From Legionella quateirensis (GTDB lineage: Bacteria > Pseudomonadota > Gammaproteobacteria > Legionellales > Legionellaceae), in NCBI RefSeq assembly GCF_001467955.1, contig NZ_LNYR01000003.1:124001-188000 (forward strand): a stretch of 64,000 nucleotides of DNA, given 5' to 3'. A program made the position numbers and the translations under genes. The notes beneath the pieces are model-generated. The model ran no database searches. It worked only from the letters and a program-made list of their open reading frames with translations, and had not been told where the DNA came from. Positions 26,792 through 36,472 of this stretch are shown here, piece after piece (positions within the stretch are counted from its first letter, which is position 1; every line of letters begins with the position of its first letter).

Positions 26792-26977
26792 TTAATGCAC
26801 TGTTTCATTCTCAATCGGATACATTAAAAACAACTGCTGCCTTCTTAATAATGAATAAGCATATATTGCTGCTTGTGCATTCTTATCAAAATCAAAGCCA
26901 CCTATGTTCAGGGCCGCCTGTTGCAAGCAGGAAATACAACTCTCTAAAATATCAAATACTTCTTGTTCTACATTCAT
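26792..26977 (-). CDS. small hypothetical protein, first gene of the tra transcript
   Basis: 61 residues, helical, with a CISC motif and no signal peptide. I do not recognise it. The Shine-Dalgarno site is weak. It is the first frame after the CACCT boxes and may be the first gene of the transfer operon. It could be a regulatory peptide or non-coding leader. Confidence 0.4.
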   Translation of the reverse strand: MNVEQEVFDILESCISCLQQAALNIGGFDFDKNAQAAIYAYSLLRRQQLFLMYPIENETVH

Positions 26978-27090: not shown

Positions 27091-28125
27091 CTAATTAAAA
27101 TAACTATTGAAATCGTAGGTAATTATCAAATATTTCATCAACTTTACATAATCGGTAAAGAGTTGTTCCAGGTTAGACTCATGCAATCCCATGTCCTTTA
27201 ACCAGTTAAAAAAATCCTCTCCTTTTAACAAGTTATGCTCCTCTCTAAATTGTTCGACTTGATATATAAGCTCGCATTGTGTAATTGCATACGTTTGTTG
27301 ATCAAGAAGAGATAGTAAGTATTGATAACGGAGCCTATTCTTTTTTGTTTCAGGAATTGATAGTAATTTAAGAATATTTTCCACTCTCTTTAGAGACACT
27401 AAACATTCTGTCTGCTCATGCACCGGGGCACGCAACCAAACAGGAGACAAAGTGGACTCAATTAATTTTTTTTCAAAAAGAGTAAACTCTCTTTTTTTTC
27501 TATTTAAATCAGAAACCGTAGAAAGAATGTGTTGTTGATTTAAAGAAAGCAATAACGACTTTGCATCCTCTTTTTTTGCATCTATATAATTAGATTTAAT
27601 CAAATGATAAAGATCTTCTGACACGTGTTGAGCAATTTTCTCCCAAGTTCTTTCAGCATAAAAAATGGATCGTATTGAATTTAAAACAGTTCCGTTATTA
27701 ATACTATTTTGTCGTTCAAGCGTTAGACGAATATTGATTAAAGGAATAGTTTGCACGTTATTGAATTTAGAATAAGCAATTGCCACTTCATCGTCGCCAT
27801 CTACTTCTTCATTCTTATACATCTCATATATACGCCCATGTCCACGCATGCCAAAAGAATCCAGCTCGGCTGCTCTCAAAGCCCCCATTGAAGCTGCACC
27901 CCAAACCTCAATACCGTAGTCTAATGCTGTTAATATTTCTTTATGCCACACAGAAGGAACCCAGGAAAAATTTCCATCGATGATAACTATCCGTTTATAC
28001 CCTGATTTTATTGCTTTAAGTACATCTCCCTTTTTGATTGAAGGTAAATACGCCGCATGGGGAAGTAGATGTATCGCTTCTTGGTGGGTTAACGAAGTTT
28101 CTAAAAAAACTACTGTTTCATACAT
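27091..28125 (-). CDS. tfuA: TfuA-like thioamidation partner protein
   Basis: 344 residues. The N-terminal TfuA domain has the diagnostic segments VPSVWHKEIL (about 57-65), GAASMGALRAAEL (about 76-88), FGMRGHGRIY (91-100) and DGDDEVA (about 109-115). TfuA proteins occur with YcaO enzymes that convert a backbone amide to a thioamide, as in methyl-coenzyme M reductase modification and thioviridamide-type peptides; TfuA is thought to deliver sulfur. The C-terminal two thirds is helical and not recognised. The start overlaps the end of the YcaO gene by 8 bp, so the pair is probably translated together. The pairing makes thioamide chemistry the leading prediction; the substrate is unknown. Confidence 0.9.
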   Translation of the reverse strand: MYETVVFLETSLTHQEAIHLLPHAAYLPSIKKGDVLKAIKSGYKRIVIIDGNFSWVPSVWHKEILTALDYGIEVWGAASMGALRAAELDSFGMRGHGRIYEMYKNEEVDGDDEVAIAYSKFNNVQTIPLINIRLTLERQNSINNGTVLNSIRSIFYAERTWEKIAQHVSEDLYHLIKSNYIDAKKEDAKSLLLSLNQQHILSTVSDLNRKKREFTLFEKKLIESTLSPVWLRAPVHEQTECLVSLKRVENILKLLSIPETKKNRLRYQYLLSLLDQQTYAITQCELIYQVEQFREEHNLLKGEDFFNWLKDMGLHESNLEQLFTDYVKLMKYLIITYDFNSYFN

Positions 28126-29179
28126 GACTTATCAAATCCATAGAAATTAGTTTTACTTTTAAAATGCATATTTCTTTGTCATAGTATTTATAAACTAAAA
28201 TATCCTGATTGTTTCCCTTAATCTTTTCAAACAGAGCTGAAAGTGCATCTTCTATTGTCTTTACCGAATAATTAGGCAACTCAGAAAAATCCTTCTTATC
28301 TTTGACGACAGGAAACTCACTAGTTTGAAAATCATACTTTGTATGAATCAAGTCATCACGGGAACCTGCTATTGTAGTTACTCGCGATTGAATAGCCTCA
28401 GTCAGTGCTCGATTTAAAGCTATTTGTTTATCGAGATGACATCCACCGCCTTTAAATAGAATTTGATTTTCAAAAGGATTTTTTGATTTAATCCATACCT
28501 CAAACGAAGGAATTTCATAAATATTTTCATGAAAGTAAATATGATAATCAAATTTTTTTGTTATATTTTTGACCATTTCACCCTTAACAAAAGCAGTTAC
28601 GGATATTTTTAGAGCATTTTGTCGTTCTATTACCTCTAGAATTCCGTGTAAAAGGGCCTCTTTAAAGTTATTTCCCCCCGCAAGTCCAGTGGTATCAGGA
28701 GAGTAAATCAATACTTCTGGCAAATAAGAATTTAGTGAGAACTCAGCAAAAGGCACAAGAATGGATTTTTCTGCAAATATTAATTCAGCTTGTACCCAAT
28801 TCATTGGCCGTGAAGAATCACTAAAGTGTACAGACTTTGAAAGATCGTTTAGCGGTATAAAAATAGCTTTGTCTTGAGCTAGCTCAAGCTCTGACTTATT
28901 AGTCAGTTGTGGTATTAATTCTTCGGCAAAATATACTTCAATGGACTCCATCAATGCCGAGCACTGAGCGGCCTCTTTTGTTAATCCTTTTCCCTGACTT
29001 GTGGTTAACGATTTTGCTCTAGGTCTTATTGCAGTATAGACAGGTAGAGCGGTGTAATCTAAATGGGTTAAATCGGCTAAGCGTGTAATTCCTGCCAGTT
29101 TCTTTAAAGAAGTCAATAAACCTAGTGTTTCGCTGTAATTACGAGCTCTTAAAGACGTTTCTTGATGCTCAAAAATCAT
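28118..29179 (-). CDS. ycaO: YcaO-domain cyclodehydratase/thioamide synthetase
   Basis: 353 residues. YcaO enzymes use ATP to phosphorylate a backbone amide oxygen. Visible motifs are the nucleotide-binding SQGKG (61-65), the glutamates of ALMESIE (E79, E81), GGNNFKEAL (about 168-176) and ILEVIERQ (E182, E185, R186). A later ALTEAIQSR segment also fits. The C-terminus lacks the PxPxP ending of azole-forming YcaO proteins, and no dehydrogenase gene is nearby. With TfuA next door, thioamide formation is more likely than azoline formation. The start overlaps the end of the E1-like gene by 4 bp (ATGA). Confidence 0.9.
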   Translation of the reverse strand: MIFEHQETSLRARNYSETLGLLTSLKKLAGITRLADLTHLDYTALPVYTAIRPRAKSLTTSQGKGLTKEAAQCSALMESIEVYFAEELIPQLTNKSELELAQDKAIFIPLNDLSKSVHFSDSSRPMNWVQAELIFAEKSILVPFAEFSLNSYLPEVLIYSPDTTGLAGGNNFKEALLHGILEVIERQNALKISVTAFVKGEMVKNITKKFDYHIYFHENIYEIPSFEVWIKSKNPFENQILFKGGGCHLDKQIALNRALTEAIQSRVTTIAGSRDDLIHTKYDFQTSEFPVVKDKKDFSELPNYSVKTIEDALSALFEKIKGNNQDILVYKYYDKEICILKVKLISMDLISHV

Positions 29180-30198
29180 TTAGAAAGCCTTTCATTAAGA
29201 TAATAGGCATCAACACCTAAGTTTCTTAGTTCTGATACAAACAATTTACTTCGATATCCTGATGCACAATAAAATACCAACTTCTTATCTTTATAGGATA
29301 AGAAAAATGAATAATCAGTATTCTCTTTAACAGGAAAAAATAGATCATCTTCTAATTTGGTAATCTCTCGTTCTTCTTTTTGCCTTATATCAACTAGAAA
29401 ATGTTTGGTTCTATCAAGTTGCCCCAGGGAAATTCCATAATCAGCGCCCTGATTCTGCAGATAACTTAAGCTGATTTTTCTTTGTTTACATGCAAAACAG
29501 TTATTATTTTGCTTTATAGGCATTGAAGAGATATTGAAGTTTTTCGCATCTATTATTCGTATCTGTGGTATTTTTTCATTCTCTATCTTGAGTAAATAAT
29601 TTAATGCCAAATTAGCAGCCATGGTTCCTGCCATTCCTGTCACAGTGCCTAAAACACCCGCTTCCGAACAATTAGGTATTACACCTATAGGTGGTGGATT
29701 TGGGTATAGACAACGATAACAAAAGTGCTTTGTATCAAATAAAGCAAGTTGAATGATATTGACCAAAATACTACAGCTGATAAATACTTTATTCTTTAAA
29801 ACACAAATATCGTTAATAAGGTATCTTGTTTCAAAATTATCTGTTCCGTCAATAATCAAGTCAATATCAGATACTAAGGAATATCCGAAATCCACATCAA
29901 ACCTTTTAGTGTGAACCTCTATGACAATATTTTTATTAATTTTTCTTAAAACATCTCTCGCTTTTTCTGCCTTATAGAACCCTATATCGCATTCATTAAA
30001 TAAGATCTGTCTATGCAAATTAGAAAGGTCTACTTTATCATCGTCGACAAGAATTAACTTTCCAACACCAGCTGCGGCAAGATATTGCGCTACTGGACTT
30101 CCTATCCCGCCGAGTCCAACGATCATAATTGTTGCGTTATTTATTATTTTTTGACCTTGCTCTCCAATAACGGAAATTTGACGTTTATATCTATCCAC
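29176..30198 (-). CDS. MoeB/ThiF-type E1 adenylyltransferase with rhodanese domain
   Basis: 340 residues. The E1-like domain (1-245) has the nucleotide motif GLGGIGS (28-34), the R/DxxNxxR region DLSNLHRQ (57-64), the metal site C160/C163 with C234/C237, and a likely catalytic Cys177 in IPNCSEAGVLG. The C-terminal rhodanese domain (about 258-340) keeps its sulfur-carrying loop, C311 in YCASGYRS. Such proteins adenylate the C-terminal glycine of a ThiS/MoaD-like protein and convert it to a thiocarboxylate. The carrier is encoded just upstream (4-bp gap) and YcaO just downstream (overlap). The sulfur is probably delivered to the YcaO/TfuA pair. Confidence 0.9.
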   Translation of the reverse strand: MDRYKRQISVIGEQGQKIINNATIMIVGLGGIGSPVAQYLAAAGVGKLILVDDDKVDLSNLHRQILFNECDIGFYKAEKARDVLRKINKNIVIEVHTKRFDVDFGYSLVSDIDLIIDGTDNFETRYLINDICVLKNKVFISCSILVNIIQLALFDTKHFCYRCLYPNPPPIGVIPNCSEAGVLGTVTGMAGTMAANLALNYLLKIENEKIPQIRIIDAKNFNISSMPIKQNNNCFACKQRKISLSYLQNQGADYGISLGQLDRTKHFLVDIRQKEEREITKLEDDLFFPVKENTDYSFFLSYKDKKLVFYCASGYRSKLFVSELRNLGVDAYYLNERLSK

Positions 30199-30202
30199 TC
30201 TC

Positions 30203-30454
30203 CTACCCTCCTGAAATAGAAGTCACAATACACACTTCATCATTTGGGTTAAGAATAATGTCTTTAATGGATGATATCTGTTCTGAGTTAACAAATACGG
30301 AAATGTATCCTTTTGAACAACCAAAGTCGTCAAACATCTTTTCAAAATTTTCTTTATAAAATTCTGCTAATACTTGTTGCAAGTTTGATTTACTGGAAAC
30401 CAATTGGGTTTGTTTTCTATCTGAATTAAACTCTATTAATTGATATTCATGCAT
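30203..30454 (-). CDS. ThiS/MoaD-like sulfur carrier protein ending in Gly-Gly
   Basis: 83 residues with a beta-grasp pattern. The segment VFVNSEQISSIKDIILNPND and the end VCIVTSISGG match the ThiS/MoaD ending, in which the terminal Gly-Gly is adenylated and then thiocarboxylated. It differs from housekeeping ThiS (about 66 residues) in having a longer middle with an FEKMFDDFGC segment. It lies directly before the E1-rhodanese gene and is probably its dedicated partner. Only AGG is visible as a ribosome-binding site. Confidence 0.85.
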   Translation of the reverse strand: MHEYQLIEFNSDRKQTQLVSSKSNLQQVLAEFYKENFEKMFDDFGCSKGYISVFVNSEQISSIKDIILNPNDEVCIVTSISGG

Positions 30455-30485
30455 TCTTATAACCTGTAGATTTTTGTATAAACGA

Positions 30486-30514
30486 CATATATAATTTACT
30501 TATATTTTTAACAA
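30486..30514 (-). promoter_or_regulatory. candidate promoter of the carrier-E1-YcaO-TfuA operon
   Basis: On the minus strand, TTGTTA and TATATG are separated by 17 bp. They lie about 32 bp before the carrier start, inside the 149-bp gap after the ATP-grasp gene. The fit is moderate in an AT-rich region. Confidence 0.3.
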
Positions 30515-30527
30515 TTGTGACGAAAAT

Positions 30528-30590
30528 ATGAACGAACAACTGTTTAAAGACCTTACTAAAAACTCATCAGCAGCCAAAATGAGGCTATAA
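30528..30590 (+). CDS. candidate 20-residue peptide inside the biosynthetic cluster
   Basis: A 20-codon frame runs ATG to TAA on the plus strand, opposite to the neighbouring genes, in the gap between the carrier gene and the ATP-grasp gene. The peptide begins MNEQLFKDL, continues with TKNSSAAK and ends MRL. It resembles a short leader or substrate peptide. However, there is no clear Shine-Dalgarno site, and a frame of this length is expected by chance. The same DNA contains inverted repeats that could be a weak terminator for the ATP-grasp gene. I list it because YcaO/TfuA systems often act on peptides and no other precursor is visible. Confidence 0.2.
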   Translation: MNEQLFKDLTKNSSAAKMRL

Positions 30591-30603
30591 TCGATTTTTA
30601 GAA

Positions 30604-31767
30604 TTAATATATTTCTACAATATCTTGCTCTGCAAGAAAGCTACCTGCTTGGTTGATTTCAGTAATACAGTCATCCCAACAAATCACCATCACTGACTTA
30701 GACATATGCGCCATTTCCTCACTGGTATCATCAGGCCTAACAAAAAGTGTCCACTCGTTTTGTACATGGAGTTCTGGCTTGTGAATTTTTTTTATAACAC
30801 CGTTCTTTCTAGGAAAATAACCACAAATGTAATGGCTTTTATTCTTTACCAAGCGAGGAGGGTCAACCTCACAAACAATACAACATAAAATTGTTTCAAG
30901 ACTCAAGGAGTATTTCTTTTGGTATAACTTATTTAGACCAATACCTGGAGGTCTAGCATTAGTTTCAATAAACTGAATACAACCATCCTCACTCATGAAA
31001 AACTCGGTGTGAAGCACCCCGTTATTGAATTCTAATAACTGGCAAATCTTAACTGAAGCATCCAAAATTAATTGTCTCTGATGCTCATCTAAAATATTCA
31101 GACTAAATATAGGCAAATTTTTACTGACCATTAAATGATTTGGATGCGTATATTTTCTGGCTTCTACAAACAATATATTCCCATCAAATACTGCCAATTC
31201 TGAATGGTATAAATCATCTGCAACATAAGCTTGAACGATATACTTTTCCTCGCTCTCTTTTTTATTGGCCAAAAAATCACAAAAATCCTTCTCGGTTTTA
31301 ATATGATATGTCTCATACGAGCCAGATGAATTAATAGGTTTAATAAATATCTCTTGATCACCTATCCTTTCTTTGATTGATTTTAGGTTTGAAGATTCAA
31401 TCAATGTTGTTGTTTTAGGATATAAAAATAAACCATCCAATTTTTGATACATAAGATCTTTATGACTTAATAGCATCGATGTATTCAAACCCATGCCTGC
31501 TATATTTAGTTTTTCCCTGACTCTTGCTACATCAACAAACATATCTTCCGAAAAACAGACTATATAATTAGGGCGAATCGAATCACAAATAGCGAGCAGA
31601 TCTTCAAATGAAAATGAGCTTACTAATACATTTTCTCTGTCCTTAACAAACTTAGATTCTTCTTTAATCAAAAAAATCGGGGAAATTCCTAGCTGAACTA
31701 GTAGATCACAATCAATTAGCTCATAATCCTGGAGGGGATCAATGCATAACAGTGTCTTTATTTTCAT
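30604..31767 (-). CDS. ATP-grasp carboxylate-amine ligase
   Basis: About 387 residues. It shows the ATP-grasp pattern: a pre-grasp Rossmann-like start (CIDPLQDYELID), EIFIKPINSSGSYETYHI with the ATP-binding lysine near residue 145, KYIVQAYVADDLYHSEL, and the metal-binding end FIETNARPPGIGLNKLY. Family members activate a carboxylate as acyl phosphate and join it to an amine or another nucleophile. In this cluster it could join amino acids or extend a peptide before or after thioamidation. The gene overlaps the end of the 420-residue unknown by about 29 bp. I chose the ATG over an earlier TTG. Confidence 0.85.
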   Translation of the reverse strand: MKIKTLLCIDPLQDYELIDCDLLVQLGISPIFLIKEESKFVKDRENVLVSSFSFEDLLAICDSIRPNYIVCFSEDMFVDVARVREKLNIAGMGLNTSMLLSHKDLMYQKLDGLFLYPKTTTLIESSNLKSIKERIGDQEIFIKPINSSGSYETYHIKTEKDFCDFLANKKESEEKYIVQAYVADDLYHSELAVFDGNILFVEARKYTHPNHLMVSKNLPIFSLNILDEHQRQLILDASVKICQLLEFNNGVLHTEFFMSEDGCIQFIETNARPPGIGLNKLYQKKYSLSLETILCCIVCEVDPPRLVKNKSHYICGYFPRKNGVIKKIHKPELHVQNEWTLFVRPDDTSEEMAHMSKSVMVICWDDCITEINQAGSFLAEQDIVEIY

Positions 31768-33001
31768 TGTATTTAATACCAAAGCATCCTACTAAAAATG
31801 TTGTTTTAGAAGGGAACTGATCTACTGAATAACCAAGTTTATCTGTTACTTCTAAAAACCGAGAATCATAAGAAAAAATTGTCTCTCTAGGCAATTTAAA
31901 TAGATTATTAGTCACTTGATTATTTTTTTCATGAAAAAGTGTTAAATCCAGATTAGTAGCACTTTCAAAAAAAGGGGTACTCTTGAAATGACCTAACTTC
32001 TTTATATGATCCGCATATTGCAAATAAGTATCGTATATTAATTCACATCGTTGTGGTTTATTTGAAAATGATGTTGGTTTAAAAGCCATCTCTTCTTTGA
32101 GTATTGAATAAAAAACAGGATTGTTTTTATTTTTATCAAAATGCACTGGCTCCATAACAAAGGGAATGTATTTGGATTTATATATATCGCGATACACCTC
32201 AACAATAAAATCTAAAGGTAATAAATCATCACCAACAGCTAATCCGTAGCCAGGAACTTGTCCTGTCCCTATAGTAATTAATTGGCTAATCGCATTATTA
32301 GTAAATTCATTTTGAGATATTTCTGGATTATTTGCACGAACATAGGCCATTAGATAATTATAAAAAGGCAGATTTGCGTAATATCCTGTTTGATTAGAAT
32401 CAAACTCCATCACCAAACTCAAAAGAGTAGGTAATTTATTCTCTTTTATTAAAGTTACAATTTCAGAGGGAAATACCAATAACCTTGAACGCCAACTACA
32501 ATTGGCTGCATCGCACAAACTTTTGAAGGTTAAATAATGATTTCCAAGATCATCTGGAACAGGAATATCCGCCTTAAAATATTTTTCTAAACTAGCATGA
32601 GGCCTTGCATCCGCTACAGGACAGAGTAAGAATGTATTCCTTGCGCCGGAAGATATTTGCAATATATCTGTTGGATGATGAGTATTTGAAGCATTATAAA
32701 GTGAACTAACGCTTAAAAAATCTCCCTCTCTATAGACCTGATGTGTACTTGACTTCCCTTTAAACTCAATAAACATTTCAAGATTTTTTTCTAAAACCAT
32801 TGAGAAAGGAACTGAAGACAGTCTGCCACCCGTATTTGGTAAATAAAAATGGTGTTCATCTGCAATAATCTGCCCATACTGATATTCAAGAACAGTAAAA
32901 AGCATATTTTCAATGCCATCTATGGTTTCCAATACTTCATAGAGGCGTTTGCTAACCCGAGCTATGTCCGTTTTTACCTTATCCCACGATAATTCACTCA
33001 T
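31739..33001 (-). CDS. unknown 420-residue protein, first gene of the ATP-grasp operon
   Basis: I do not recognise the family. The protein is soluble, without signal peptide or membrane segments. It is slightly acidic, with a helical start (about 1-45), an apparent beta-rich middle (50-130), a segment CPVADARPHASLEKYF (about 127-142), and TIGTGQVPGYGLAVGDDLLPLDFIVEVYRD in the second half. The Gly-rich VPGYGLAVGDDLLP stretch looks like a substrate or cofactor pocket, but no standard motif fits. It overlaps the ATP-grasp gene, so the two products probably act together. It is divergent from the small LuxR-type regulator. Confidence 0.75.
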   Translation of the reverse strand: MSELSWDKVKTDIARVSKRLYEVLETIDGIENMLFTVLEYQYGQIIADEHHFYLPNTGGRLSSVPFSMVLEKNLEMFIEFKGKSSTHQVYREGDFLSVSSLYNASNTHHPTDILQISSGARNTFLLCPVADARPHASLEKYFKADIPVPDDLGNHYLTFKSLCDAANCSWRSRLLVFPSEIVTLIKENKLPTLLSLVMEFDSNQTGYYANLPFYNYLMAYVRANNPEISQNEFTNNAISQLITIGTGQVPGYGLAVGDDLLPLDFIVEVYRDIYKSKYIPFVMEPVHFDKNKNNPVFYSILKEEMAFKPTSFSNKPQRCELIYDTYLQYADHIKKLGHFKSTPFFESATNLDLTLFHEKNNQVTNNLFKLPRETIFSYDSRFLEVTDKLGYSVDQFPSKTTFLVGCFGIKYNENKDTVMH

Positions 33002-33116
33002 ATGGCATCAATTTAAAATCCTATTAATTAACTGAATCATACAAGAGAACATGAGGGTATTCAATCAATCCGTATTTCATGTAATAAAATTTATTGGTAA
33101 AAATAACAATTTTTAT

Positions 33117-33128
33117 TGCATTAATGCA
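33117..33128. promoter_or_regulatory. palindrome in the divergent promoter region
   Basis: A perfect 12-bp palindrome, TGCATTAATGCA, lies between the 420-residue unknown gene (minus strand) and the small LuxR-type regulator (plus strand). It is placed to control either one. The small regulator at 33.2 kb is the obvious candidate ligand. No binding evidence exists. Confidence 0.3.
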
Positions 33129-33183
33129 TTTCAAGTTATAAATTATGTCACATGGAACGCGTTTTTATATAAACGGAGTTTAA

Positions 33184-33378
33184 ATGACAATTGATCATGT
33201 GGATAATCAAATCATAAAAATGATAGTCAGCGGCTGTCATGTGAATGACATTGCAGAAGATACAAAAAAGTCAAAGAGATACATTCTTTACCGACTCAGT
33301 GACTTAAAAACTAGCTTTAATTGTAAAACCACGCCGCAGTTAATTTATATGCTGGCTACATCAGGTTTAATTAAGTAA
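33184..33378 (+). CDS. stand-alone LuxR/GerE-type helix-turn-helix regulator
   Basis: 64 residues, which is only the DNA-binding domain. NQIIKMIVSGCHVNDIAEDT, then SKRYILYRLSDLKTSF, then TTPQLIYMLATSGLI follow the LuxR C-terminal pattern. No receiver or ligand-binding domain is present. GGAG precedes the ATG. Similar short GerE-type proteins can act as constitutive activators. It lies between the biosynthetic genes and a winged-helix protein, 21 bp upstream of the latter, so it probably regulates the cluster. Confidence 0.7.
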   Translation: MTIDHVDNQIIKMIVSGCHVNDIAEDTKKSKRYILYRLSDLKTSFNCKTTPQLIYMLATSGLIK

Positions 33379-33399
33379 TATTTTTCACATGGATGTATT

Positions 33400-34422
33400 A
33401 TGAATAATTCGATTTATTATTTAGGCTTTAACAAGCTTCTCTCATTAACCAAATGCTCTAAAGAAGCACTTCTCTTAGATAAAATAATTTTTCATCATCA
33501 AGGTACCCTTTTAAAGCGCGAAAATAGATTATGGTTTACAAAAAAAATTCCAGAACTTGCAGCAGAGCTTGGGTTTAGCGAAAGCAGAATATATATTTAC
33601 CTAAAAAACTTAGAAGAAAACGGCTTCATTATCAGAAAACGATTTAAATATTACGGTGTGCCTCGATCGTTTATAACCCTTACAGAAACGCTTCAAAGAA
33701 AATTACAACTGATCCCCAAAGAACCCAAAAGCACTATAGAGGTAAAAGAAAAAGAGCTTGTTTCTGAGCCAGATATAAACGAGAGAATGGATTATCTTGT
33801 TTCAACAGATATCATTAATAAAGAAAAAAATAGAGTAATTAATAATATTACCTTTTCTCAGTCAGACACCAGATTACCACTCAATGAGCTCCATATTGCT
33901 AAAGGGATGTTGATGAATGTTCAAAAGCAACACGGAGTAAAACTATCCTCACCACAAAAGGTCTTGGATGAGGTTGTATTTTCATTAAGTAACCAAGAAC
34001 AATTCCAAAACATTGGCACTTTTCAACACAAAATTAATATCATTTCTCAACTTCTTCGCTCAAATCGCTGGAGAACACCCAAAGGATTTGATAAATATTC
34101 TCCTGAAGGGAAACGTTACAAGGAAAAGCACGACCTGGAAAATGCTGTTCGACTACAATTGAAGAAGGAAGAATGTACATATTCTGGATTAGATGAGATC
34201 GCTACACATAAACATTTATCCAATGTTTATGAATTGGCTCATCCCCCATGTACTAACATAGAATTACAAAAGTCACTTCAAATTCAACAAAGTCTTATAA
34301 ATGGCATTAAAAAAGATATCAAAACAATAAAAAACCCTAATGTATTGGATAATTTTCTAAAAATATTAGCTCAAGAAGAAACAAAATTATCCAAATTACA
34401 GGCGGAGTTATCGTTACAATAG
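33400..34422 (+). CDS. winged-helix DNA-binding protein
   Basis: 340 residues. Residues about 15-95 form a winged-helix domain: LTKCSKEALLLDKIIFH, then FTKKIPELAAELGFSESRIYIYLKNLEENGFI, then a basic beta turn. This type occurs in plasmid replication and regulatory proteins that open with a statement of input type and helix-turn-helix. The rest is helical and charged, ending in a likely coiled coil. I do not recognise the full-length family. The stop codon is 1 bp from the convergent transporter gene. It could be a cluster regulator, or a plasmid-backbone protein interrupted by the cargo. Confidence 0.6.
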   Translation: MNNSIYYLGFNKLLSLTKCSKEALLLDKIIFHHQGTLLKRENRLWFTKKIPELAAELGFSESRIYIYLKNLEENGFIIRKRFKYYGVPRSFITLTETLQRKLQLIPKEPKSTIEVKEKELVSEPDINERMDYLVSTDIINKEKNRVINNITFSQSDTRLPLNELHIAKGMLMNVQKQHGVKLSSPQKVLDEVVFSLSNQEQFQNIGTFQHKINIISQLLRSNRWRTPKGFDKYSPEGKRYKEKHDLENAVRLQLKKEECTYSGLDEIATHKHLSNVYELAHPPCTNIELQKSLQIQQSLINGIKKDIKTIKNPNVLDNFLKILAQEETKLSKLQAELSLQ

Positions 34423-34423
34423 A

Positions 34424-35878
34424 TCATGCTACTCCTTCGATCGCTTCGACCGAGATTTTTTGTATACTATTCTCAATCGTTTTAGAACATAACCAGAGAA
34501 TGAGTGCACCAAAGATGGCATAAAGACCTAGCTGGGTAAATGCGCTCATATAATGTTCATTGCTAATAAGCGGATTTAGTGATTCCGATTGAGTCATTAA
34601 ATTAGAAAAATAGTTGGATAATGTGGCTGCTATTCCTGAAGCCATCATCCATATCCCCATCATAAGTCCTTGCAGTTTTTCTGGTGCAAGACTTCCTATC
34701 ATCGCGTAACCAACAGGAGCAATAAGCAACTCCCCTATCGCCTGAAGAAGATAATGCGCAATAATCCAAATCATGCTAGTTAATCCCTCAGTACCACAAT
34801 TCATTATGCCAACAGTCAATGCCAAAAACGACAATGCAATAAACACTAAGGAACACATAAATTGTTTTGATATTGAAATGGTGATTTGTTTCTTTCTTAG
34901 TTTATCAAATAGAGTGATTGCTATAGGTGAGCCAATAATTACAAAAATTGAGTTTAAATTCATTAACCATTGTGGAGGAATATAATAAGTACCTATGTAA
35001 ATACTCACGTTATACTTCAAGAATTGAGTCACACCCATAGGTCCTACAAAATAAAGCATCCAAAATACAATTGAACTTACCGTTAAAAATACAAAAGAAT
35101 ATATTTTTTTTCGTGCATTTTGTGTACTTAAACTTCGTCCAAGTAATGTTATATAGAATAAAGCCGCAGAACCAATTAAGAGTATGAGGCCATTTGCTAA
35201 CCAAGAATAATAAAACCCTGCTAGAAGAATAGGTATAATAAATATGATTAATATCAGACCTAGTCGACCCCTCTTTATCTCCTCCCTGGTATTTACTTTA
35301 TTTTTTGCGAAATATCTCCACGATTTAATAATGAAAAACACCGTAATTAGATTAATCAAATTACTTACTTCAAATAAACGATCGTATCTATCGTGAATAT
35401 CAATAAATCCGCTCATAACATAACCAGAGAGGAATCCTATATTCATAGCACTGTAATTATGAAAAAATGCTTTTTCTCTTAATTCATTTTCGTTACTTGT
35501 AAATTGTTGGGTAATAAGGCAGTTAATACATGTAGATCCTAATCCACACCCTATAAGAAACAAGCTTAACCCTAGATACACAATAGAATCAGAAAAATTA
35601 AGTACTATTAACCCTAAAGTTTGTATAAGCGTTGAAATGGCAAATAGCAATCGATTACTTAAAAATCTATCCCCAATGTACCCCGCTACAAAATGTAAAA
35701 TAAAATTTGATGCCAGAAAAAATCCTACGATTCCATTGGATTGCATTTGAGTTAAGCCAATATTCTTTGTTAAATAAAGGGATAATGATGAAAATAAAAT
35801 AGCAAAACTGAATGTAGTTATTGCATTTAGCCAATGTAGATAAACTACCCCTTTTCGCTCACCCCTTACAGCATGCAT
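34424..35878 (-). CDS. POT/MFS-type transporter of the biosynthetic island
   Basis: 484 residues with about 12-14 membrane segments. The pattern matches the proton-dependent oligopeptide transporter branch of MFS: GYIGDRFLSNRLLF after the second helix and LLQAIGELLIAPVGYAMIGSLAP near the tenth. The first helix lacks the ExxER motif that peptide importers use for proton coupling (it reads HWLNAITTFSF). It could therefore be an exporter or act on an altered substrate. It lies 33 bp after the LOG-like gene on the same strand. The likely job is export or re-uptake of the cluster product. Confidence 0.85.
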   Translation of the reverse strand: MHAVRGERKGVVYLHWLNAITTFSFAILFSSLSLYLTKNIGLTQMQSNGIVGFFLASNFILHFVAGYIGDRFLSNRLLFAISTLIQTLGLIVLNFSDSIVYLGLSLFLIGCGLGSTCINCLITQQFTSNENELREKAFFHNYSAMNIGFLSGYVMSGFIDIHDRYDRLFEVSNLINLITVFFIIKSWRYFAKNKVNTREEIKRGRLGLILIIFIIPILLAGFYYSWLANGLILLIGSAALFYITLLGRSLSTQNARKKIYSFVFLTVSSIVFWMLYFVGPMGVTQFLKYNVSIYIGTYYIPPQWLMNLNSIFVIIGSPIAITLFDKLRKKQITISISKQFMCSLVFIALSFLALTVGIMNCGTEGLTSMIWIIAHYLLQAIGELLIAPVGYAMIGSLAPEKLQGLMMGIWMMASGIAATLSNYFSNLMTQSESLNPLISNEHYMSAFTQLGLYAIFGALILWLCSKTIENSIQKISVEAIEGVA

Positions 35879-35911
35879 TTCATTTCCTTATTAAAAACTT
35901 TTACTGTTACA

Positions 35912-36472
35912 TCACACAAACAATTCTTCAGATTTTACTTGGACTAAATCACTCAATAATTTTTTAGGTTCAACTTGCACGGAGGGAATAGCTGTTTGCT
36001 CAGCTGTTATAAATCCATTTTTATTACAATGATCCATAAAACTAAATAGTTTTATAAAGTAATCATCAACGTTAAGAAACCCTATCTTTTTGTCAAGCTC
36101 TCCAATTTTTATTGCATTCCATGTTTCAACAGCTTCCTCTAGTGTTCCTAAACCACCAGGCATAACGATAAATGCGTCAGCCAGATATTGAAGCATTTTT
36201 TTTCTTTCTTGCATGGAGGAGACTATATGAAGTTCATCTAGAATGTCTAACGGTTTTTCTTTGTCTAAAAGATGTGTGGTAGTAACCCCGATCGCTTTAC
36301 CGCCCAACTCTTTTACAGTTCTTGCTAATAAACCCATCATACCAAGACGTGACCCACCATAAACTAGTGTAAGTCCATGAGCAGCTATTTCATGAGCAAG
36401 CTTAATAACAGCTTCTTTGAATACCAGATTATTTCCAGAACTAGCACCAAGATATACACAAATTGTTTTCAT
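35912..36472 (-). CDS. LOG-family nucleotide phosphoribohydrolase
   Basis: 186 residues. The LOG signature PGGLGTLEEAVETW is present, with YGGSRLGMMGLLA before it. LOG proteins cleave the N-glycosidic bond of (cytokinin) nucleoside 5'-monophosphates and release the free base; many bacterial members act on ordinary purine nucleotides. The protein has the usual length. It is placed before the transporter, so it belongs to the cargo island. It might release a base-like part of the product or protect the host. It could also be unrelated cargo. Confidence 0.88.
   Translation of the reverse strand: MKTICVYLGASSGNNLVFKEAVIKLAHEIAAHGLTLVYGGSRLGMMGLLARTVKELGGKAIGVTTTHLLDKEKPLDILDELHIVSSMQERKKMLQYLADAFIVMPGGLGTLEEAVETWNAIKIGELDKKIGFLNVDDYFIKLFSFMDHCNKNGFITAEQTAIPSVQVEPKKLLSDLVQVKSEELFV

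What the first reader, a model, noticed from the sequence alone, without database searches (positions are those of the whole stretch)
27091..36472. Possible thioamidation system with its own sulfur relay on a plasmid
Directly visible: TfuA, YcaO, an E1-like protein with a rhodanese domain and a Gly-Gly-ending carrier are adjacent and overlapping, and an ATP-grasp ligase, an unknown protein, a transporter and a LOG hydrolase follow. Known: YcaO with TfuA forms thioamides, and E1/ThiS/rhodanese sets make protein thiocarboxylates. Inference: the carrier feeds sulfur to YcaO/TfuA, and the ATP-grasp enzyme builds or extends the substrate. I am not aware of a characterised cluster with exactly this set. 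The product may be a small thioamide peptide or a modified amino acid or base exported by the POT-type protein.
Basis: partly seen in the sequence, partly recalled or inferred. Interest (0 to 1): 0.88.

Follow-up and report, generated by a model that had tools for sequence, protein, structure and literature searches.

The report
Plasmid-borne thioamide peptide gene cluster
Legionella conjugative plasmids carry a conserved gene set that looks able to swap oxygen for sulfur in the backbone of a very short, unannotated peptide, and it shares an unknown helper protein with chromosomal clusters that methylate peptide backbones instead.

Summary
TfuA, YcaO, an E1-rhodanese protein, a Gly-Gly carrier, an ATP-grasp ligase and a 420-aa unknown protein (UNK) are adjacent at 27091-33001; a POT transporter is nearby; LOG is a neighbour, not a part. 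The set recurs in 18 Legionellaceae genomes (own included; one lacks carrier and E1 beside it), and a distant second type, shuffled, in 7 loci. The proposed sulfur relay is plausible, but that mechanism is already published for other organisms. This genome has no other E1 or ThiS protein, no MoaE and no ThiG over cut-off.

New here: (1) a 20-codon ORF on the opposite strand (30528-30590), the only one of 12 unannotated small ORFs conserved in divergent copies, is a likely precursor peptide. (2) UNK (no Pfam family; C-terminal half without a PDB match) also sits beside borosin-type backbone N-methyltransferases. (3) POT-linked methylation loci (18 of 18) and second-type thioamide loci share an N-x-I-x-x-I core; MFS-linked ones (0 of 13) and the window-type peptide do not. 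Best reading: one modular family of backbone-modified ribosomal peptides with interchangeable chemistry and a shared handling protein. All chemistry is inferred.

The parts
27091..28125 (-). TfuA (344 aa): presumed thiocarboxylate hydrolase that hands sulfide to YcaO
   Evidence: PF07812 5e-35; PDB 6xp8 TfuA 2.5e-28 with the ASMGALRA stretch aligned; 5 relatives of both types aligned
28118..29179 (-). YcaO (353 aa): presumed thioamide-forming, ATP-dependent
   Evidence: PF02624 8e-39; nearest solved structure MJ1094 6pe3 2e-15; below the McrA and SagD cut-offs
29176..30198 (-). E1-like adenylyltransferase with C-terminal rhodanese domain
   Evidence: PF00899 7e-67, PF00581 2e-4; Gly-rich loop, four Cys of two CxxC pairs and the Cys of CxxGxR invariant in 5 of 5
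30203..30454 (-). ThiS/MoaD-like sulfur carrier, 83 aa, ends Gly-Gly
   Evidence: PF02597 3e-6; terminal GG in 6 of 6 aligned; profile matches 2g1e Ta0895 at 0.002
30528..30590 (+). Candidate precursor peptide, 20 codons plus stop, opposite strand (MNEQLFKDLTKNSSAAKMRL)
   Evidence: only 1 of 12 unannotated small ORFs of the region conserved in divergent copies; found in 18 of 18 window-type loci, third codon positions change most; divergent from the carrier gene
30604..31782 (-). ATP-grasp ligase (listed from TTG; an in-frame ATG lies at 31767)
   Evidence: PF13535 1e-7; PDB L-amino acid ligase 4wd3 2e-13
31739..33001 (-). UNK, 420 aa: N-terminal cyclic-nucleotide-binding-like beta-roll plus C-terminal domain without a PDB match
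33184..33378 (+). 64-aa protein with weak LuxR-type HTH match, divergent; possible regulator
   Evidence: GerE 0.07, below cut-off; 88-100% conserved in the window-type loci
33400..34422 (+). 340-aa protein with weak winged-helix matches, conserved neighbour
   Evidence: HTH families, all below cut-off; 74-100% conserved in the window-type loci
34424..35878 (-). POT (PTR2) peptide transporter, presumed exporter of the product
   Evidence: PF00854 5e-30; beside UNK also in methyltransferase loci at 42-46% identity

Best explanation
A conjugative-plasmid pathway for a thioamidated ribosomal mini-peptide (RiPP). Inferred steps: (1) the + strand 20-codon gene makes the substrate; (2) E1 adenylates the carrier's Gly-Gly end and its rhodanese domain supplies persulfide sulfur, giving a carrier thiocarboxylate; (3) TfuA hydrolyses this and passes sulfide to YcaO, which has activated a backbone amide with ATP, giving a thioamide; (4) the ATP-grasp ligase tailors or extends the peptide; (5) UNK receives the modified core and delivers or trims it for export by the POT transporter. 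Steps 2-3 follow a published mechanism; 1, 4 and 5 are inference from genomics. Nothing here shows the product.
For: Family and structure matches for the enzymes. The gene set in 18 window-type loci (17 complete, 1 without carrier and E1 beside it) and, shuffled, in 7 type-2 loci; also POT-UNK-E1-YcaO-TfuA in one genome outside the family (L181). Own genome has no other E1 or carrier, no MoaE, no ThiG over cut-off. Cluster E1s apart from thi- and moa-type E1s. Precursor: 1 of 12 unannotated small ORFs conserved, 18 of 18 loci, codon-position bias; type-2 loci have 38-46-codon sense ORFs in the same gap with core [IV]SLN[ST]I in 7 of 7. UNK sits beside borosin-type methyltransferases (dbOphM 4e-39, SonM 3e-32), themselves RiPP enzymes, with small ORFs just upstream.
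Against: No expression, mass or activity data. The window-type mini-peptide lacks the N-x-I-x-x-I core of the other types; its ribosome-binding site in the window copy is weak; promoter-like sites are no more than chance. In the two most distant copies most changed codons alter the amino acid (9 of 12 and 11 of 14), and the copies are related, so codon counts are not independent. L076 lacks carrier and E1 beside it, though its genome has a pair on another contig. L181 has no carrier hit in its stretch and its E1 groups weakly with thi-type E1s. POT proteins usually import (recalled). UNK's role is unproved; several UNK genes outside Legionellaceae have no evident partner.
Confidence: 0.66

Rival explanations
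1. The set thioamidates a host or plasmid protein (as happens on archaeal McrA and on ribosomal protein uL16), and the mini-ORF is unrelated.
For: Apart from the general YcaO domain model, YcaO and TfuA score best against the McrA-thioamidation models in NCBIfam; protein targets are known (abstract starts; passages of PMC13063428).
Against: Scores are well below those equivalog cut-offs; a transporter, an ATP-grasp ligase and conserved small ORFs accompany the genes; UNK is shared with borosin-type loci.
Confidence: 0.1
2. The ATP-grasp enzyme makes a di- or tripeptide from free amino acids, which YcaO/TfuA then thioamidates; POT exports it. No ribosomal precursor.
For: Nearest solved relative is an L-amino acid ligase; POT transporters handle di- and tripeptides (recalled).
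Against: L181 has no ATP-grasp hit in the fetched stretch but has UNK, E1, YcaO, TfuA and a 54-aa ORF with the core motif; precursor-like ORFs are kept in 18 of 18 and 7 of 7 loci.
Confidence: 0.14
3. The + strand mini-ORF is not the substrate but a regulatory leader, antisense RNA or small toxin-like peptide; the true precursor lies elsewhere.
For: It is divergent from the downstream genes, only 20 codons, and lacks the core motif of its relatives.
Against: It keeps length and key amino acids while bases change, mostly at third positions; it stays in L076, where carrier and E1 are not in the locus; it is the only conserved unannotated small ORF.
Confidence: 0.28
4. UNK is a regulator of the Crp/CNB kind that senses product or a nucleotide, not a maturation or delivery factor.
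For: N-terminal half resembles cyclic-nucleotide-binding domains, and some matches run over whole Crp/Fnr proteins; multiple copies without evident partner outside Legionellaceae.
Against: The C-terminal half alone matched no solved fold, DNA-binding or other; 39 of 42 UNK loci have a modification enzyme in the fetched stretch.
Confidence: 0.35

Closest known systems
YcaO-TfuA thioamidated RiPPs (thioviridamide-like, thiovarsolins; mined in PMC6511847 and PMC8120280)
   Same: Adjacent YcaO and TfuA; ThiS-like proteins occur beside TfuA in some actinobacterial families (network 18 in PMC6511847, passages read).
   Different: Gram-negative conjugative plasmid; opposite-strand 20-aa precursor candidate; UNK, E1-rhodanese, ATP-grasp and POT added; the main text of PMC8120280 has no word beginning Legionell (supplements not searched).
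McrA glycine thioamidation (archaeal YcaO/TfuA; ThiS thiocarboxylate donor)
   Same: Same enzyme pair and donor logic (PMC13185837, PMC13063428 passages).
   Different: Equivalog scores far below cut-off; bacterial plasmid with transporter.
Split borosins (SonM/SonA, PMC8429565 passages)
   Same: Chromosomal UNK relatives sit beside SonM-like methyltransferases with separate small precursor-like ORFs.
   Different: The window cluster has no such methyltransferase; no held paper has both borosin and Legionella.
ycaO/tfu genes drawn beside Legionella F-type T4SS (PMC3218107, figure legend passage)
   Same: Same place beside transfer genes.
   Different: Called proteins of unknown function there; no pathway, carrier or precursor in the passages read.

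Membership tests
YcaO-TfuA thioamidated RiPP cluster | Adjacent YcaO and TfuA genes | tested here: met
   Overlapping genes, families over cut-off
YcaO-TfuA thioamidated RiPP cluster | Dedicated sulfur donor (ThiS-like carrier with GG end plus E1) | tested here: met
   sole members found in the genome; sulfur transfer itself not testable
YcaO-TfuA thioamidated RiPP cluster | Cognate precursor peptide gene | tested here: inconclusive
   Conserved 20-codon ORF in 18 of 18 window-type loci; substrate role not shown
YcaO-TfuA thioamidated RiPP cluster | Thioamide in the product | not testable with these tools
   No chemistry available
McrA glycine thioamidation proteins | Score over equivalog cut-offs NF033432 / TIGR03266 | tested here: not met
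   173.7 against 235.2; 137.4 against 365
SagD-type azoline cyclodehydratase | Score over TIGR03604 cut-off | tested here: not met
   70.3 against 219.25
Moco or thiazole E1/carrier pair | Equivalog score, partner MoaE or ThiG in the genome, phylogenetic grouping | tested here: not met
   moeB 158.6 against 376.55, thiF 210.9 against 275.25; MoaE absent; ThiG 20 bits, under cut-off 23; separate group in the tree
Split borosin | SonM-like alpha-N-methyltransferase in the cluster | tested here: not met
   None among the ten proteins scanned; seen only in other UNK loci
Split borosin (related UNK loci) | SonM-like enzyme with separately encoded precursor | tested here: inconclusive
   Enzyme match strong for the one protein searched, others by similarity to it; small ORFs upstream; their binding-domain fold and methylation not tested
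Crp/Fnr or CNB proteins (UNK) | CNB-type beta-roll | tested here: inconclusive

The most novel reading that the evidence does not exclude
UNK defines a new modular superfamily of backbone-modified ribosomal peptides in Legionella and related Gammaproteobacteria: one handling protein (a CNB-like domain plus a domain for which no PDB match was found) and one transporter serve interchangeable backbone chemistries (thioamidation, alpha-N-methylation, perhaps others by class I methyltransferases or paired ATP-grasp ligases), and the peptide core follows the transporter rather than the chemistry.
Probability: 0.5. Interest if true: 0.78.

Novelty: new variant of a known kind. Interest (0 to 1): 0.64.

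Why it matters
It would give a Gram-negative, plasmid-borne thioamide RiPP with its own sulfur relay, a precursor so short and so placed (20 codons, opposite strand) that length-limited gene finders miss it, and an uncharacterised protein family (317 proteins at E <= 0.001; no Pfam domain in the 120 rows shown) that marks further peptide clusters. The core motif shared by methylating and thioamidating loci makes it directly testable whether maturation and export are decoupled from the modification chemistry. Why conjugative plasmids of Legionella keep it is open.

Tried and rejected
Rejected: LOG as a cluster member. 61-aa ORF 26792-26977 as precursor: conserved in window-type loci but no NCBIfam match and outside the operon; not carried further, so not excluded. 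A sense-strand ORF in the ligase-carrier gap of the window type: not conserved. In one search the 61-aa and 64-aa ORFs were masked as genes, so 'only 1 of 12' concerns the remaining small ORFs. Promoters and terminators: 13 promoter-like sites against 16.6 expected, no terminator, so no information. UNK by sequence against PDB: 0 hits at E <= 10. UNK C-terminal domain against PDB by Foldseek: best E 0.54; this is not proof of a new fold. The order-level genome search gave the same 143 genomes as the family-level one, so it adds nothing. One weak TfuA place (G128, E 3e-4) was dropped from counts. Of the UNK places listed only part was fetched with surroundings. One search looked at 25 methyltransferase loci by eye; one search repeated this by script on 31 of the 32 seen (L083, short contig without a transporter, left out). 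The core motif was noticed first and tested afterwards; the POT-linked loci are close relatives, so 18 of 18 against 0 of 13 is not 31 independent tests; background 61 of 2514 small ORFs. The mini-ORF pattern was written from copies already seen. A third kind of YcaO/TfuA locus without UNK in the fetched stretch (L130-L138) was only sketched.
Full report
WHAT IS THERE. On the minus strand the order of transcription is UNK (33001-31739), ATP-grasp (31782-30604), carrier (30454-30203), E1-rhodanese (30198-29176), YcaO (29179-28118), TfuA (28125-27091); several genes overlap by a few bases. Families are from Pfam and NCBIfam. Upstream are a divergent 64-aa and 340-aa protein with weak DNA-binding matches, then POT, LOG and three genes that match the replication, ParB and ParA genes of an annotated L. 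hackeliae plasmid; in annotated relatives F-type transfer genes follow on the other side. The window is part of a 188,163-base contig. G+C of 26-40 kb is 0.33-0.36 against 0.41-0.45 from 10 to 26 kb.

CONSERVATION. Eight plasmid records match by DNA, all Legionella, seven over at least 80% of the stretch. TfuA profile matches occur in 31 of 143 Legionellaceae genomes, at 39 places. Sorting these by fetched loci gives 18 window-type loci (all have UNK, ATP-grasp, YcaO and TfuA; 17 have carrier and E1 beside them), 7 type-2 loci (L036-L040, L128, L129; in the first five UNK is 29-30%, E1 39%, YcaO 37-39%, TfuA 32-34% identical to the window, order changed; two carriers aligned are 23% and 27%), 13 places of a third kind without UNK in the fetched stretch, and one weak place that I dropped. 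E1 lies beside 24 of the 25 UNK-containing loci. The exception, L076 (same contig position as G087), belongs to a genome with an E1 and a GG-ending carrier on another contig. Outside the family, L181 has POT, UNK, a 54-aa ORF, E1-rhodanese, YcaO and TfuA in a row, with no carrier hit.

SULFUR RELAY. Carrier GG is kept in 6 of 6; E1 glycine loop, CxxC cysteines and the CxxGxR cysteine in 5 of 5 (the roles of these motifs are recalled). TfuA aligns to 6xp8 through ASMGALRA. In the own genome the plasmid genes are the only PF00899 and PF02597 matches at E <= 0.001, MoaE is absent and ThiG is below its cut-off, so service to molybdopterin or thiazole synthesis is very unlikely there. Other Legionella genomes do have chromosomal E1 and carrier genes. 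A tree of 31 E1s puts the 11 cluster E1s of types 1 and 2 on one side of a branch (100/99), away from E1s next to thi-like genes (e.g. L193, L195) and moa-like genes (L204), which I named by eye from their sequences. Third-kind E1s and the L181 E1 fall on the other side, L181 weakly (84/66) beside the thi-type ones; the tool warns that long branches meet. That TfuA hydrolyses ThiS thiocarboxylate with a Ser-Lys pair is stated in PMC13185837, and that carriers plus TfuA serve thioamide-forming YcaO in low-sulfide organisms in PMC13063428 (passages); the original (Liu et al. 2021) is not held. I did not test the Ser-Lys pair by residue.

PRECURSOR. The gap of about 150 bases between ATP-grasp and carrier is kept. 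In the window type it holds, on the other strand, a 20-codon ORF: window MNEQLFKDLTKNSSAAKMRL; L126 MNEQLFKDLSKSSSAAKMRL; L127 MNEQFLKDIVKNSSAAKMRL; L033 MNEQLFKDLGKNSSAAKMRL; L055 MNDKLFNDLVKTSSNFRMRM; L076 MNELFFNDLIKTGASLKIKL. Changes against the window by codon position are [1,1,6], [4,2,7], [1,1,6], [6,5,10] and [5,6,13] for L126, L127, L075, L077 and L115/L076; changed codons are silent/altering 5/2, 5/4, 6/1, 3/9 and 3/11, so the silent excess holds for the closer copies only. L076 and L055 have AGGAG- or GGAG-like sites upstream; the window's is weak. Of 12 small ORFs (15-110 codons) outside known genes in the region it is the only conserved one (the 61-aa and 64-aa ORFs counted as genes). 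In 7 of 7 type-2 loci the same gap holds a sense ORF of 38-46 codons with an acidic front and core PISLNSISLI, PISLNSIGLI, PVSLNTIELI or ESISLNSIDFI (two start with GTG).

UNK. It has no Pfam family and no sequence match in the PDB at E <= 10. A search with the window protein found 33 relatives, with the L181 protein 317. The model (pLDDT 87.5) has an N-terminal cyclic-nucleotide-binding-like roll; the C-terminal half, folded alone (pLDDT 85.0, pTM 0.83), has no Foldseek match below E 0.5. Of the 42 UNK loci examined, 10 have the thioamide set (L076 without carrier and E1), 29 have a TP-methylase (28 of them with POT or MFS) and 3 (L050, L051, L081) have neither in the stretch, two of them with POT. 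One such methylase was searched against the PDB: dbOphM 4e-39, SonM 3e-32, which are peptide backbone N-methyltransferases. Small ORFs lie just upstream. By script, 18 of 18 POT-linked and 0 of 13 MFS-linked methylase genes (31 of the 32 seen) have N-[KSTQ]-[IV]-x-x-[IV] in that ORF; so do the three type-2 thioamide ORFs given and the L181 ORF, but not the three window-type peptides given; background is 61 of 2514. The POT-linked loci are close relatives. Of the type-2 loci only L040 shows POT; L036, L128 and L129 have a 470-aa protein without a Pfam match instead, so the link of core to transporter is a hypothesis. A profile search found UNK in 24 of 369 sampled Gammaproteobacteria genomes, 22 of them outside Legionellaceae. 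In 20 fetched stretches partners include methylase+MFS (2), E1/YcaO/TfuA (1), paired ATP-grasp plus an alanine-dehydrogenase-like gene (1) and, in 6 by eye, a 220-240-aa protein; three of these were scanned and match class I methyltransferase models, two over the cut-off. Several have no evident partner.

WHAT IS KNOWN. PMC3218107 draws ycaO and tfu beside Legionella F-type transfer genes as of unknown function (legend passage). PMC10434180 reports that 34% of Legionellales plasmids hold biosynthetic clusters (passage). Searches for borosin+Legionella gave 0 papers, for Legionella+plasmid+YcaO 4, for Legionella+RiPP+biosynthetic gene cluster 35 and for three of TfuA/YcaO/thioamide/rhodanese 17. 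I read passages of eight papers; none of those passages describes this cluster. Only the held open-access library was searched.

VERDICT. A real, conserved, very probably functional thioamide pathway; its relay is a known mechanism, while its precursor candidate, its helper protein and its kinship with backbone-methylation loci are new as far as these searches show. The product and UNK's role remain unproved.

Noticed in passing
L176, L177, L179, L184, L187, L192: UNK relatives outside Legionellaceae sit next to about 220-240-aa proteins; of three scanned, two pass and one falls under the cut-off of class I SAM methyltransferase models. Possibly another peptide-modifying partner.
   Followed up: partly
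L173: UNK beside two ATP-grasp ligases, an alanine-dehydrogenase-like protein and POT, without YcaO or N-methyltransferase hits.
   Followed up: partly
L131, L132, L134, L136: A third kind of locus with two YcaO and two TfuA matches plus E1 (a GG-ending carrier seen in L131 and L136), no UNK in the stretch; L131 is on contig C1 (4.18 Mb) of the genome whose C2 has the length of L. fallonii plasmid II.
   Followed up: partly
L084, L087, L089 upstream of the methyltransferase: The candidate borosin precursors carry two copies of the core (SNKIVSIQ ... SNKIVNIK or SNKIVSIK), like multi-core RiPP precursors.
   Followed up: no
window 26792-26977, minus strand: A 61-aa ORF after TfuA, 74-100% conserved in the window-type loci, no NCBIfam match; followed in two annotated relatives by a csrA-like gene and traT.
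   Followed up: partly
L036 1248-2660 and relatives in L128, L129: A 470-aa protein with no Pfam match lies in type-2 thioamide loci, perhaps a transporter taking the place of POT.
   Followed up: no
L. anisa plasmid NZ_CP082853.1 94056-95618 (H8): Holds LOG and a stretch matching about two thirds of POT but not the rest of the locus, perhaps a remnant of a lost cluster.
   Followed up: no
window near 40 kb: GC skew changes sign at about 40 kb, next to the ParA-like gene.
   Followed up: no
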